Shown piece by piece: positions 25,242-37,442 of a stretch of DNA of 37,836 nucleotides (positions within the stretch are counted from its first letter, which is position 1; each line of letters opens with the position of its first letter). The notes beneath the pieces were generated by a model that saw only the letters and a list, made by a program, of their open reading frames with translations, made no database searches and had not been told where the DNA came from. Both the position numbers and the translations under genes were made by a program. The stretch is from Saprospiraceae bacterium (GTDB taxonomy: Bacteria > Bacteroidota > Bacteroidia > Chitinophagales > Saprospiraceae), in the NCBI GenBank assembly GCA_020846655.1, contig JADLDL010000360.1, forward strand, positions 1-37,836. The letters are read 5' to 3'.

Positions 25242-26366
25242 ATGAAACAACAAACACAAACATCGCCGCGCACACCCGTCCATTACGTGGTGTGGCGCTC
25301 GGAACCTGGTGGCGCCGAACTCTCGGTCAACCACTACATCCGGCACTTCAGCCCCCGGCGCGAGGTATATGTGTATAGCCTGCGCGCCGCCGAAAACGAA
25401 CTCTACGACGCCAGCAAGATTCATTTTCAAAACGGCGCCGACAAGGACTGGGAATGCTACAAACGCTATTTCCGGTATTGCCGGGCGCACCGCGGCCATG
25501 TGTTTCACCTGATGAGCACCGGCCCGATTATTCTCCTGATTACCCTGCTGGCCGGGCTACGCCTGCCGGTGTACCACATCCACGGCACGATCTACTGGAA
25601 AAAGCCGCTGAAAAAACTCTACCTCAAAACCGCCTGGTGGCTCGCCTCCTGGTTCCGGATTCATTTTGTGGCCAATTCAAAATACAGCGCCGGCATCTTC
25701 CGGCGTGTGGTGCTGCCGGTAGAGCCGAAGGTCATTTACAACGGCTTCGACGTAGACCATTTCTGGCGCCAGCGCAGCCAGCGCCAGCACCCGAAACGCC
25801 TGGCCTACGCCGGCCGCCTGCAACCCGGCAAAAACGTGGACCTCGTGCTGCGTTTGTTTGAAGATGTGGCCGGCCAATACCCCGAACTGGAACTGCACAT
25901 CGCCGGCGAAGGCGCCCTGCGCCCCGCCCTGGAGCAGCAGGCCCGCGACAGCCAATTCGGCGCACGCATTCATTTCCACGGCTGGGTCCGGGATGTGGCG
26001 GCGTTCTACGGCAGCGTCGACCTGTTTCTGTTTCTCAGTGCCTACGAATCCTTCGGCAACGTGCTCTCCGAGGCCTTGCTCACCGGCCTGCCGGTGCTCA
26101 CCAGCCCGGTGCCCGTGTTTGAGGAGATTCACGGCGGCGAAAAAGCCTTTTTGTTGGGCCAGCCGGAACAGTACGCCGAACTCCGGGACAATCTGAACCA
26201 AGCCCTGCTCCAGTTCCCCAGCCTGGCCCAAAAAGCCTTCGACCTGGGCGAGCAACTGAAGCCGGTCTTTGATATTGACAACCATTTGATTGAAATCGAA
26301 CGTATTTATGAGCAAATTGAGTCCACCCGTCATCTATTACCACTCCGTAGCGCCGAAGCTGTTTGA
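25242..26366 (+). CDS. GT4 family glycosyltransferase
   Basis: This 374-residue GT-B retaining transferase has the GT4 hallmarks: RLAYAGRLQPGKNVDLVL at the start of the C-terminal domain, the turn IHFHGWVRDVAAFYGSVDL and the E-x7-E motif in YESFGNVLSEALLTGLPVL. The N-terminal domain contains VYHIHGTIYWKKPLKKLY. It should act at the cytoplasmic membrane face. The gene starts the first decoration cassette. Its 3' end overlaps the deacetylase gene by 59 bases in a different frame, an unusually long overlap. The donor sugar is unknown. Confidence 0.92.
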   Translation: MKQQTQTSPRTPVHYVVWRSEPGGAELSVNHYIRHFSPRREVYVYSLRAAENELYDASKIHFQNGADKDWECYKRYFRYCRAHRGHVFHLMSTGPIILLITLLAGLRLPVYHIHGTIYWKKPLKKLYLKTAWWLASWFRIHFVANSKYSAGIFRRVVLPVEPKVIYNGFDVDHFWRQRSQRQHPKRLAYAGRLQPGKNVDLVLRLFEDVAGQYPELELHIAGEGALRPALEQQARDSQFGARIHFHGWVRDVAAFYGSVDLFLFLSAYESFGNVLSEALLTGLPVLTSPVPVFEEIHGGEKAFLLGQPEQYAELRDNLNQALLQFPSLAQKAFDLGEQLKPVFDIDNHLIEIERIYEQIESTRHLLPLRSAEAV

Positions 26367-27465
26367 CCGTTGGGTGCTGCGTTTCCTGACGCTGGAAATG
26401 AGCACGTTCGAGGATCAAATGGCCTACCTGCGCGAGCACGGTTTTCGCGCCGTTTTTTTTGAAGAATGGCTGGCCTTCCGCACTGGCGCCCAACGCGTCA
26501 GCGGCAAAGAAATCTGCATCGCGTTCGACGATGGCCTGCTCGACAACTGGGTCTACGCCTACCCCATCGCCAAAAAATACGGCCTGCGCTTCACCCTGTT
26601 TGTGTCGCCCGAATGCATCGACCCGCGCGACACCGTGCGCCCCACCCTGGAAGATGTGTGGGCAGGGCGCTGCCGCGAAAAAGACCTCACGGGCTTGGGC
26701 TACCTGAACTGGGCCGAACTCCGGCTCATGCAGGCCTCGGGTGTGGTGGACGTGCAGTCGCACACCATGTCGCACACCAAATACCCCGTGTCGTCGAACA
26801 TCGATTGTTTTTACTACGGCGGCTACCGGGGCATGTACCCCATTTGGAACGCCCGGCCCGCGGACAAAGCCCGCTATTTTGAGGATGCCGGTTTTGAGCA
26901 GCGCTTGCCGCTGGGCACGCCGTTGATGGAGGAAAAATCGGCCGTCGTCGCGCGAAAACACGAGATCAACCCCGGTTTTTTTGCCGAAACGGCAGCCCTC
27001 GCCAACAAATTCGAACTCAACATTCCCGAGCACCGGCCGGCCTATGAAGCCGAAGCCCGGGCCATCCACACGCGCTACGCCCTGGCCGGCACGCTGGTGA
27101 CCGGCGTCGAGTCGGAAGCCGATTTTCAGGCCCGGCTGCGCTACGAGATTGTGGATTCTAAAACTATTCTTGAAGAAAAACTGCAAAAACCGGTGCGCAT
27201 TCTGTGCTGGCCCCACGGCGACAACTCGCCCGAAGCCCATGCCCTGGCCAAAGCCAGCGGCTACCTGGCCACCACCGCCGGCAAACTGACCGAACTGGCC
27301 GACGAGCCCGACCGGATACCCCGCATCGGGACCTCCTGGAGCCTGGGCCAATGGCTCAACCGCCAGAAATTTCACTACAAAATTTCGAGCCACTACCACA
27401 AACAGCCCTACTACAGCTTCTGGCTGGCCAACGAATTCAAAAATAAACTCCTGCAACGCAGCTAA
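26308..27465 (+). CDS. Polysaccharide deacetylase (NodB/CE4 family), no signal peptide
   Basis: This 385-residue protein has a NodB-like deacetylase core that removes N-acetyl (or O-acetyl) groups from sugars using a metal ion. Motif 1 is IAFDDGLLDNW (D74, D75) and motif 2 is QSHTMSHTKYP with the metal ligands H152 and H156. A late block, RILCWPHGDNSPE then ASGYLAT, corresponds to the R/W-containing motifs. I chose the ATG at 26308 (MSKLSPPVIYYHSV); the in-frame TTG at 26290 adds nothing. There is no signal peptide or membrane anchor, so it probably acts in the cytoplasm on a nucleotide- or lipid-linked sugar, unlike secreted CE4 enzymes. The insertion between motifs is long. It overlaps the GT4 gene by 59 bases and lies two bases before the AsnB-like gene. 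Confidence 0.88.
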   Translation: MSKLSPPVIYYHSVAPKLFDRWVLRFLTLEMSTFEDQMAYLREHGFRAVFFEEWLAFRTGAQRVSGKEICIAFDDGLLDNWVYAYPIAKKYGLRFTLFVSPECIDPRDTVRPTLEDVWAGRCREKDLTGLGYLNWAELRLMQASGVVDVQSHTMSHTKYPVSSNIDCFYYGGYRGMYPIWNARPADKARYFEDAGFEQRLPLGTPLMEEKSAVVARKHEINPGFFAETAALANKFELNIPEHRPAYEAEARAIHTRYALAGTLVTGVESEADFQARLRYEIVDSKTILEEKLQKPVRILCWPHGDNSPEAHALAKASGYLATTAGKLTELADEPDRIPRIGTSWSLGQWLNRQKFHYKISSHYHKQPYYSFWLANEFKNKLLQRS

Positions 27466-36384: not shown

Positions 36385-37442
36385 TGAGAATCATATTTGA
36401 CATCGGCCACCCTGCGCACGTGCATTTGTTCAAACACCTGGCGCGCCTGTTGATGAAAGACGGCGCCGAAGTGTTGTTTACGGCCCGCGACAAGGAATTT
36501 GAACTGGATCTTCTGAAAGCAGAGGGTTTCCCGTACATCTGTTTTGGCAAACACTACCGAAGCCTGCCCGGCAAAATCTGGGGCCTGCTGCGCTACGATA
36601 TTCAAATGCTGCTGACCGGCCTGCGCTTCAAACCGGATCTGCTGGTCAGCCACGGCACCCTGTATGCGGCCCACGCAGCGCCTTTCCTCGGCGCCAAATA
36701 CCTCTCCATCGAGGACACCGGCAACATGGAACAAGTGGTGCTGTACCGCCCGTTTACGGACATTATCCTGACGCCGGAAGTGCTGCCCAAAGACCTGGGC
36801 CCCAAGCAGGTACGCTACAACGGGTACCACGAAATCGCCTACCTGCACCCCGAATTTTTCACCCCCGACCCCTCGATCCGCCAATGGCTCGGCGTGGCGG
36901 AAGACGAGGAATACGCGATCATTCGCTTTATTTCCTGGGATGCCAGCCACGATGTGGGGCACAAGGGGCTCTCGCGGGAGGACAAGGTGGAATTGGTGAA
37001 AAAACTCTCCAAAAGGATGAAAGTGTTCATCACTTCTGAGCGCGGCGTGTCGGAAGAATTGAAACCCTTCTGCCTGCAAATGCCGCCGGACAAATTCCAC
37101 CATGTGCTGAATTACGCTTCGCTGGTGATCAGTGAAGGCACCACGACGGCCACAGAGGCCGGTATTTTGGGCACGCCTTGTGTGTACATCAGCACGTTTG
37201 TAGACCCCAACTGCCAGGAAATGGAAGGCTTTGGCCTGGTGTTCAATACCTCCGAGTCCGGCAAGGTATTCAACATGGTGGACGAGGTACTCAACACCGA
37301 CCGGCAGGTGTACCGCGACCGCGCCAAGGCATTCCTTGAAACCAAAGTCAACGTGACCCGGTACTACTACGATTTTATCGTAAACCGGTATCAAAAGAAC
37401 AATGCATCAATCCAAGATCCATCATGGAAATCAAGTTATTAA
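36384..37442 (+). CDS. DUF354 family GT-B fold protein (UDP-GlcNAc 2-epimerase-like)
   Basis: This 352-residue protein has the DUF354 start IIFDIGHPAHVHLFKHLARL, which resembles the first strand and helix of UDP-GlcNAc 2-epimerases and related GT-B proteins. Further matches are DLLVSHGTLYAAHAAPFLGA, the IEDTGNMEQV region and VISEGTTTATEAGILGTPCV, the nucleotide-sugar-binding helix of the fold. The activity of DUF354 proteins is not defined; a transferase or an epimerase is possible. The gene begins within the stop codon of the FemAB-like gene and overlaps the next gene by 19 bases. No membrane segment or signal peptide is seen. Confidence 0.85.
   Translation: MRIIFDIGHPAHVHLFKHLARLLMKDGAEVLFTARDKEFELDLLKAEGFPYICFGKHYRSLPGKIWGLLRYDIQMLLTGLRFKPDLLVSHGTLYAAHAAPFLGAKYLSIEDTGNMEQVVLYRPFTDIILTPEVLPKDLGPKQVRYNGYHEIAYLHPEFFTPDPSIRQWLGVAEDEEYAIIRFISWDASHDVGHKGLSREDKVELVKKLSKRMKVFITSERGVSEELKPFCLQMPPDKFHHVLNYASLVISEGTTTATEAGILGTPCVYISTFVDPNCQEMEGFGLVFNTSESGKVFNMVDEVLNTDRQVYRDRAKAFLETKVNVTRYYYDFIVNRYQKNNASIQDPSWKSSY

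What the first reader, a model, noticed from the sequence alone, without database searches (positions are those of the whole stretch)
25242..37442. Two parallel decoration cassettes, each with a GT4 transferase, deacetylase, AsnB-family protein and GNAT/FemAB acyltransferase
Cassette A is GT4 (25242), NodB deacetylase (26308), AsnB-like (27468), GNAT (29260) and ATP-grasp (30354). Cassette B is GT4 (31427), AsnB (32460), NodB deacetylase (34316), FemAB-like (35353) and DUF354 (36384). The same four enzyme classes occur twice with tight overlaps. A deacetylase frees an amine, an AsnB-family or ATP-grasp enzyme activates a carboxylate, and a GNAT/FemAB protein attaches acyl or aminoacyl groups. 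Together they could build amino-acid-substituted or uronamide sugars. I know of no described system with this doubled set.
Basis: partly seen in the sequence, partly recalled or inferred. Interest (0 to 1): 0.75.

Follow-up and report, generated by a model that had tools for sequence, protein, structure and literature searches.

The report
Conserved sugar-decorating operon in Bacteroidota
The two gene sets are real, but they are parts of one surface-polysaccharide operon of a single bacterial clade, most likely adding amide and amino-acid-like groups to sugars with chemistry already known elsewhere, plus an uncharacterised enzyme pair that may be new.

Summary
"Two parallel cassettes" is not the natural unit: counterparts are at most marginally similar, and relatives show blocks A1-A5+B1 and B2-B5. 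A3, B3 and B4 share the same 14 of 42 genus genomes (one extra weak B3 match), but these lie on one side of one branch, so this is one gain. WbpD and WbpB open the operon; a WbpE-like gene lies elsewhere. Best reading: one Wzx/Wzy polysaccharide operon in which B2/B3/B4 work like WbpS/VimE/VimA (amidate, de-N-acetylate, N-aminoacylate), while A2-A5 add a second modification with a LysX/RimK-fold ATP-grasp ligase and a glutaminase-dead AsnB relative. The chemistry has precedents: the Wbp/Vim pathway, and the Rubrivivax/Thauera cluster with repeated deacetylase and AsnB genes. Use in type IX protein anchoring is possible but unproved: type IX signals occur in 42 of 42 genomes, B4 in 14.

The parts
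10775..11353 (+). WbpD-type hexapeptide N-acetyltransferase (start GTG)
   Evidence: phmmer to 3mqg 'Lipopolysaccharides biosynthesis acetyltransferase', E 1.3e-72 (its name WlbB, a WbpD counterpart, is recalled); Pfam Hexapep
11404..12372 (+). WbpB-type sugar 3-dehydrogenase (Gfo/Idh/MocA)
   Evidence: phmmer to WbpB 3oa2, E 1.4e-113
12448..14790 (+). Wzc-type chain-length regulator / tyrosine kinase (exact start not settled; ORF opens at 12397)
   Evidence: NCBIfam TIGR01007 above its cut-off; Pfam Wzz, GNVR, AAA_31
14810..16279 (+). Wzx-type flippase
   Evidence: PF13440, E 2.4e-93
16296..18295 (+). two GT2 glycosyltransferases in tandem
   Evidence: PF00535; 49% identical over 329 aa
18292..22629 (+). 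CDP-sugar set: RfbF, RfbG, dTDP_sugar_isom-type epimerase, DegT aminotransferase, NeuD-type acyltransferase
   Evidence: TIGR02623, TIGR02622 and TIGR03570 above cut-off; PF00908, PF01041
22651..23694 (+). glycosyltransferase GTx
   Evidence: PF13524
23755..25203 (+). Wzy-like polymerase / O-antigen ligase family
   Evidence: PF04932, just over cut-off; sits before A1 in the relatives whose contig shows this stretch
25242..26366 (+). A1, GT4 glycosyltransferase
   Evidence: PF00534
26308..27465 (+). A2, NodB/CE4 deacetylase, motifs DDG and HTMSH
   Evidence: PF01522, PgaB-like below cut-off; motifs in the translation and in relatives
27468..29249 (+). A3, AsnB-fold enzyme without Cys2; TGGFDGR in place of SGGxDSS
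29260..30357 (+). A4, GNAT_6/FemAB-like acyltransferase; one to four copies or pieces in relatives
   Evidence: PF13480; copies; tree
30354..31430 (+). A5, ATP-grasp ligase of ArgX/LysX/RimK fold
31427..32449 (+). B1, GT4 (travels with the A block)
   Evidence: PF13692; synteny
32460..34319 (+). B2, full AsnB-type amidotransferase (Cys2 and SGGLDSS intact), WbpS-like
   Evidence: PF00733/PF13537; TIGR01536 above cut-off, TIGR03108 second and below cut-off; alignment
34316..35314 (+). B3, NodB/CE4 deacetylase, VimE-like
   Evidence: PF01522; motifs
35353..36384 (+). B4, GNAT_6/FemAB acyltransferase, VimA-like
   Evidence: PF13480 + PF02388; TIGR03019 34 bits, below its cut-off
36384..37442 (+). 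B5, DUF354 (predicted GT-B-like; recalled)
   Evidence: PF04007; next to or near B4 in some distant genomes
37424..37836 (+). start of a probable NDP-sugar epimerase, cut by the contig end
   Evidence: the ORF begins with an ITGGAGFIGSN Rossmann motif (no family search of this ORF); a 325- or 328-aa ORF follows B5 in L119-L122, L124 and L125, typed as epimerase in L119 only

Best explanation
One Wzx/Wzy-type surface-polysaccharide operon, conserved in one clade of Saprospiraceae, whose decoration enzymes act on lipid-linked or nucleotide sugars. Wbp enzymes (WbpB and WbpD in the window, WbpE and a sugar dehydrogenase elsewhere) supply a 2,3-diamino uronic acid; B2 amidates its carboxylate (WbpS-like), B3 removes an N-acetyl group (VimE-like) and B4 puts an amino acid or other acyl group on the freed amine (VimA-like). 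In the A block, A2 frees another amine, A4 (one to four copies or pieces in relatives) re-acylates it, and A5 (RimK/LysX fold) with A3 (AsnB fold, no glutaminase Cys) form a further amide bond by activating a carboxylate. GT4 enzymes A1 and B1 and the GT-B-like B5 build the sugars in. Shown: gene content, motifs, predicted folds, synteny, single-clade distribution. Inferred: substrates, order of steps, acyl donors.
For: Same-strand run from WbpD to the epimerase with short gaps. Wzc, Wzx, Wzy-like and sugar genes. WbpD E 1.3e-72, WbpB E 1.4e-113; a WbpE-like aminotransferase (3nu7, E 1.5e-95, tied with 7b0d at 2.4e-96) next to an NDP-sugar dehydrogenase over cut-off in the same genome. NodB motifs, Cys2 and PP-loop in B2. 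A3, B3 and B4 in the same 14 of 42 genomes. Wbp/Vim precedent: deletion of WbpS abolishes the uronamide, swapping vimA changes Ser to Gly, VimE proposed as the deacetylase (passages and section 20 read). A5-like and A3-like genes within about 1 kb in 4 of 5 distant Bacteroidota loci with a strong A5 match.
Against: No glycan is known. B4 scores 34 bits against TIGR03019 (cut-off 260) and B2 399 against TIGR03108 (cut-off 817), so VimA/WbpS orthology is unproved. In the phylum samples (395 genomes for B4, 335 for B3, perhaps not the same set) the genomes with B3 and with B4 matches overlap only in the window's own. The A3 profile found only 4 weak partial matches in 394 other phylum genomes and did not list the genomes of L078-L080 and L082 (at most 3 candidates scored in each). 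G007 and G009 show no B2 in the contiguous locus. WbpB is also in 18 of 28 genus genomes without the cassette. The CDP-sugar set, not the Wbp sugar, could supply the substrate.
Confidence: 0.6

Rival explanations
1. The B set makes the sugar that links type IX secretion (T9SS) cargo to surface polysaccharide in this clade, as the Wbp/Vim pathway does in P. gingivalis and T. forsythia; the A set makes the neighbouring sugar or a second linker.
For: Wbp B/D/E-type genes plus AsnB, NodB and FemAB-like enzymes; T9SS sorting signals above cut-off in 42 of 42 genus genomes; a 2025 paper finds a different linking sugar in P. intermedia and says several pathways may exist (passages).
Against: B3/B4 orthologues are in only 14 of 42 genomes although all 42 have T9SS signals, so this linker would not be general to the genus; no sortase gene was looked for beside the cassette.
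Confidence: 0.2
2. It is an aggregation/biofilm exopolysaccharide with de-N-acetylated, re-acylated sugars, like the Rubrivivax psc1 / Thauera EPS cluster 1, without exosortase.
For: The passages seen of that cluster's gene table list NodB, FemA, several GT group 1, three AsnB/WbpS, MBOAT and a second deacetylase; complementing the deacetylase restored flocculation in Thauera (passages). L123 has MBOAT and a further NodB behind B5.
Against: Exosortase over cut-off in 4 of 42 genus genomes and in 1 of the 14 with the cassette, none in the own genome; no phenotype known. It overlaps with the best explanation and differs in what the product is for.
Confidence: 0.3
3. The two blocks are independent passengers of a sugar-gene island with no joint function.
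For: The blocks sit on different contigs, with other genes next to them, in G002, G011, G019, G036, and are parted by three opposite-strand ORFs in G020; their joint occurrence is one phylogenetic event.
Against: A3, B3 and B4 are kept in all 14 genomes although A3 identity to the window falls to 50% and nearby sugar genes differ; blocks adjacent in G000, G007, G009, G022, G023, G032, G038.
Confidence: 0.15
4. A3 is a catalytically dead AsnB remnant or a purely structural partner of A5.
For: Cys2 lost, PP-loop changed to TGGFDGR, and TGNFGSE (12 of 14 rows) where AsnB has a Glu-bearing SGEGSDE-type motif (the AsnB motif is recalled).
Against: TGGFDGR is invariant in 14 of 14 aligned sequences including one at 22% identity; A3-like genes sit beside A5-like genes in other families.
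Confidence: 0.2

Closest known systems
Wbp/Vim linking-sugar pathway (P. gingivalis, T. forsythia; PMC7468200, PMC13086638)
   Same: WbpB, WbpD, WbpE-type enzymes, an AsnB-type amidotransferase, a CE4 deacetylase and a GNAT/FemAB-like acyltransferase with a GT, in T9SS-bearing Bacteroidota with Wzy-type assembly
   Different: Most genes clustered here, scattered there; extra A block (second NodB, GNAT copies, ATP-grasp, glutaminase-dead AsnB); only 14 of 42 T9SS-bearing genus genomes have it; no product known
PEP-CTERM/exosortase floc EPS cluster (Rubrivivax psc1, Thauera EPS cluster 1; PMC3684757, PMC4784049)
   Same: NodB + FemA + GT group 1 + WbpS-type AsnB, with deacetylase and AsnB genes more than once, MBOAT
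   Different: No ATP-grasp and one FemA in the passages seen; PEP-CTERM-associated, whereas no exosortase was found in the own genome
C. jejuni capsule amidoligase Cj1438C (TupA-like ATP-grasp; PMC11800379)
   Same: ATP-grasp amide bond formation on a uronic acid carboxylate in capsule synthesis
   Different: Described as a TupA-like fold, fused to a GT; amine partner is serinol-P/ethanolamine-P; not compared with A5 directly
LysX/ArgX/RimK ATP-grasp ligases
   Different: 16-18% identity; protein substrates there (recalled)
Carbapenam and beta-lactam synthetases, TsnB9, AsnB
   Different: 10-14% identity; those act on small molecules (recalled)

Membership tests
Wbp/Vim pathway | Wbp enzymes making a 2,3-diacetamido uronic acid | tested here: inconclusive
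   WbpB and WbpD clear; WbpE tied with another transaminase; the NDP-sugar dehydrogenase beside it is over the TIGR03026 cut-off but could not be typed as WbpA
Wbp/Vim pathway | VimE: CE4 deacetylase with intact motif | tested here: met
   B3 PF01522, DDG and HTxxH; no direct comparison with the VimE sequence
Wbp/Vim pathway | VimA: GNAT/pepcterm_femAB-type aminoacyl transferase | tested here: inconclusive
   B4 PF13480 and FemAB, TIGR03019 34 bits, under cut-off; activity untested
Wbp/Vim pathway | WbpS of eps_aminotran_1 family (optional step) | tested here: inconclusive
   B2 TIGR03108 399 bits, cut-off 816.9; TIGR01536 433.9, over its cut-off
Wbp/Vim pathway | product is the T9SS cargo linking sugar | not testable with these tools
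   needs mass spectrometry; T9SS signals in 42 of 42 but B3/B4 orthologues in 14 of 42
PEP-CTERM/XrtA EPS system | exosortase in the genome | tested here: not met
   PF09721: none in own genome (96.7% complete); over cut-off in 4 of 42 genus genomes, 1 of 14 cassette genomes
PEP-CTERM/XrtA EPS system | FemAB of TIGR03019 and amidotransferase of TIGR03108 over cut-off | tested here: not met
   34 of 260 and 399 of 817 bits
Glutamine-dependent asparagine synthetase-type amidotransferase (A3) | N-terminal Cys nucleophile | tested here: not met
   position 2 is F, L or R in 14 of 14 rows
Glutamine-dependent asparagine synthetase-type amidotransferase (B2) | Cys2 and SGGxDSS | tested here: met
   invariant in 13 of 13 rows save S274, which is in the 90% list
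ATP-grasp amino-acid ligase (A5) | ATP-grasp fold with conserved Lys and metal ligands | tested here: met
Wzx/Wzy polysaccharide cluster | Wzx, Wzy, Wzc and initiating transferase | tested here: inconclusive
   Wzx, Wzy-like, Wzc in window; an initiating Bac_transf gene was typed only near B5 in relatives L119 and L123; the window ends before it

The most novel reading that the evidence does not exclude
The clade carries two separate amine-unmasking and amide-forming lines on one Wzy polymer: a Wbp/Vim-type line that makes its own T9SS linking sugar, and a second line in which a glutaminase-dead AsnB relative and a LysX-fold ATP-grasp ligase together condense an amino acid with a sugar, with tandem FemAB-like enzymes extending it stepwise. 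A3+A5 would be a new kind of sugar-amide synthase, recurring in distant Bacteroidota.
Probability: 0.15. Interest if true: 0.75.

Novelty: new variant of a known kind. Interest (0 to 1): 0.45.

Why it matters
A 2025 paper reports that T9SS linking sugars differ between species and that several biosynthetic pathways may exist (passages). This clade offers a compact, clustered candidate gene set outside the oral genera, together with an uncharacterised AsnB-like + ATP-grasp pair that recurs in other Bacteroidota loci. Both are directly testable by in vitro enzymology and glycan or cargo-peptide mass spectrometry. If it is only another decorated exopolysaccharide, it is still a clear worked case of how these bacteria diversify surface sugars.

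Tried and rejected
Tandem duplication of one cassette: rejected, counterparts are at most marginally similar. Exosortase/PEP-CTERM membership: rejected for the own genome. Co-occurrence of A3/B3/B4 as independent statistical support: the naive chance 1/C(42,14) is 2e-11, but rejected as evidence because the 14 genomes lie on one side of a single branch (quick tree, 40 of 42 genomes, G001 and G018 dropped for lack of gyrB over cut-off; root at midpoint). Sequence search of solved structures with the A3 profile gave nothing at E up to 0.01. hhalign of A3 against B2 aligned only 144 columns, so residue correspondence outside the PP-loop is not settled. Typing the DegT of L026 and the NDP-sugar dehydrogenase by solved structures gave no hit at the strict cut-off used. 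The Myxococcus spore-coat comparison led nowhere: one literature listing, no paper opened for it. The listings showed no paper on a cluster with ATP-grasp + AsnB + NodB + GNAT; led back to the papers cited. This is not proof that none is printed.

Dropped or partial: G030 lacks A1, A2 and B2 in what was fetched, at contig ends; A5 of G020 was missing and found; the script missed B3 of G019, which one search found; G040 has A3 in two pieces and a truncated A2. Four of 24 A4 rows, under 250 aa, were left out of the tree. Of the weaker A5 matches three loci were read (L083, L087, L088): none has a gene scored by the A3 profile, L087 has a full AsnB next to A5. Of the four weak A3 matches, G187 was not fetched; L086 is a full AsnB. 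Distant B4 genomes G237, G152 and G447 were not fetched; of the seven distant B4 loci read (L129-L135), three have DUF354 next to or near B4. B2 was not searched genome-wide.
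Full report

Surroundings. The genes belong to one same-strand run that opens with a WbpD-type acetyltransferase (3mqg, E 1.3e-72) and WbpB (3oa2, E 1.4e-113), then Wzc, Wzx, two GT2, a CDP-sugar set, a GT and a Wzy-like protein. Gaps within A1-B5 are -59 to +38 bases. The window is the entire contig, so the downstream end is lost. A WbpE-like aminotransferase (3nu7, E 1.5e-95, tied with a scyllo-inositol transaminase entry at 2.4e-96) is in the same genome on another contig, beside an NDP-sugar dehydrogenase.

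Are there two parallel cassettes? The sets are not copies of one another. In relatives the order GTx - Wzy-like - A1 - A2 - A3 - A4 - A5 - B1 holds where the contig shows it, with methyltransferase or further GNAT genes slipped in around A4 and A5 in some. B2-B3-B4-B5 follows directly in some genomes. In G002, G011, G019 and G036 it lies on another contig, followed by an epimerase-type ORF, while other genes follow B1; in G020 three opposite-strand ORFs part B1 from B2. The natural break is therefore between B1 and B2, not between A5 and B1. A4 is present in one to four copies or pieces; in the four genomes G002, G023, G036 and G040 the two copies fall into separate groups by position (next to A3, next to A5) rather than by genome, which points to old, retained duplicates (quick tree, 20 of 24 rows). 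G007 and G009 show no B2 in the contiguous locus and a second GT4 instead.

Distribution. A3 (13 genomes near full length, G040 in pieces), B3 and B4 are found in the same 14 of 42 genus genomes; one further genus genome, G015, has a weak B3-profile match at E 5e-16. On a gyrB tree of 40 of the 42 genomes the 14 are one side of one branch (SH-aLRT 95; one change, shuffled mean 11.8, 0 of 500 shuffles as low). So the joint presence fits one gain kept by the whole clade: fair evidence of lasting joint use, poor evidence of independent co-selection. WbpB is in 32 of 42 (14 of 14 with the cassette, 18 of 28 without). T9SS sorting signals are above cut-off in 42 of 42. Exosortase is over cut-off in 4 of 42 and not found in the own genome.

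Wider relatives. In 395 phylum genomes the A5 profile matched 27 at E 1e-10; besides the own genome, four matched at E of 1e-99 or better and one partial at 1e-44. Of those five loci, four carry an AsnB-like gene scored by the A3 profile (55-103 bits) next to A5 or one gene away (L078, L079, L080, L082; not L081). Against this, the genome search with the A3 profile listed none of those genomes and only four weak partial matches beside the own genome (at most 3 candidates scored in each), and three weaker A5 loci that I read have no A3-scored gene. L078 and L080 add a second ATP-grasp and a phosphatidylserine-decarboxylase-family gene. The B4 profile matched 11 of 395 and B3 7 of 335; the only genome in both lists is the own one, which speaks against a widely shared B3-B4 unit as these profiles define it. 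G206, outside the class, carries A2-like and B3-like deacetylases and a third of WbmS type, A3-like and B2-like AsnB proteins, a B1-like GT4 and DUF354 genes in one 29-kb contig, with no GNAT or A5 found by these profiles: a second, partial case of doubled classes.

Mechanism. B2 keeps Cys2 and the SGGxDSS loop, so glutamine-dependent amidation of a uronic acid is plausible. B3 and A2 keep the CE4 motifs. B4 resembles the PEP-CTERM FemAB family weakly (34 bits). Veith et al. 2020 (PMC7468200; passages and section 20 read) show that deletion of WbpS abolishes the uronamide and that swapping vimA changes the amino acid from Ser to Gly, and propose VimE as the deacetylase of the Wbp sugar; they also note the same set in PEP-CTERM loci. 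That is the best model for B2-B4. For A3, position 2 is F, L or R in 14 of 14 rows and TGGFDGR is invariant, so it cannot draw ammonia from glutamine by the usual Cys; relatives of this fold that lost the Cys join amines other than ammonia (recalled). A5 keeps the conserved Lys and acidic residues in 12 of 12 rows. A carboxylate-activating, amide-forming role for A3 and A5 is inference. An ATP-grasp that amidates a capsule uronic acid is known in C. jejuni (PMC11800379, passages read).

Comparison and novelty. The closest described arrangement with repeated classes is the Rubrivivax/Thauera EPS cluster; the passages seen of its gene table list NodB, FemA, several GT, three AsnB/WbpS and a second deacetylase (PMC3684757), and complementing a deacetylase gene restored flocculation in a Thauera mutant (PMC4784049, passages). 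What remains unusual is the A block with its AsnB-like + ATP-grasp pair and multiple GNAT copies, and its joining to a Wbp/Vim-like set in a T9SS-rich clade. I rate it a new variant of a known kind. Whether the product is an exopolysaccharide or a T9SS linking sugar cannot be decided from sequence: all 42 genus genomes have T9SS signals but only 14 the cassette, which lowers the linking-sugar reading without excluding it, because linking sugars differ between species (PMC11969387, passages). Papers seen: those above as stated, PMC13086638 passages, PMC1569441 passages; others only as search listings.

Noticed in passing
window 7101-10427: Large T9SS-type surface protein (SprB repeats, GBD_T9SS_assoc, Por_Secre_tail just below cut-off) directly upstream of the polysaccharide operon.
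   Followed up: no
L019, L020, L025, L028, L030, L032, L123: The A4 GNAT gene occurs in one to four copies or pieces between A3 and A5, with old position-specific lineages; methyltransferase genes lie in or next to this stretch in some genomes; the pieces in L025 and L123 may be decaying copies or assembly faults.
   Followed up: partly
L078:1216-2025 and L080:16211-17029: Phosphatidylserine-decarboxylase-family gene inside polysaccharide loci with A3-like, A5-like and a second ATP-grasp gene; might decarboxylate a sugar-bound amino acid.
   Followed up: no
L196:516-9402: Four long (526-559 aa) ORFs scored weakly by the A4 GNAT profile (21-38 bits), clustered near a B3-like deacetylase in G369.
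   Followed up: no
L184:2540-4988: NAD-synthase-family and AMP-binding enzyme genes beside a B2-like AsnB in the G206 polysaccharide locus.
   Followed up: no
L135:9171-16998: Two GNAT/FemAB-type genes, two ATP-grasp genes (one PF14397 sugar-transfer associated), a WbpB-like and a NeuD-like gene in one stretch of G332: another possible amino-acyl sugar locus.
   Followed up: partly
window 16296-18295: Two GT2 genes in tandem, 49% identical over 329 aa, so probably a local duplication.
   Followed up: partly
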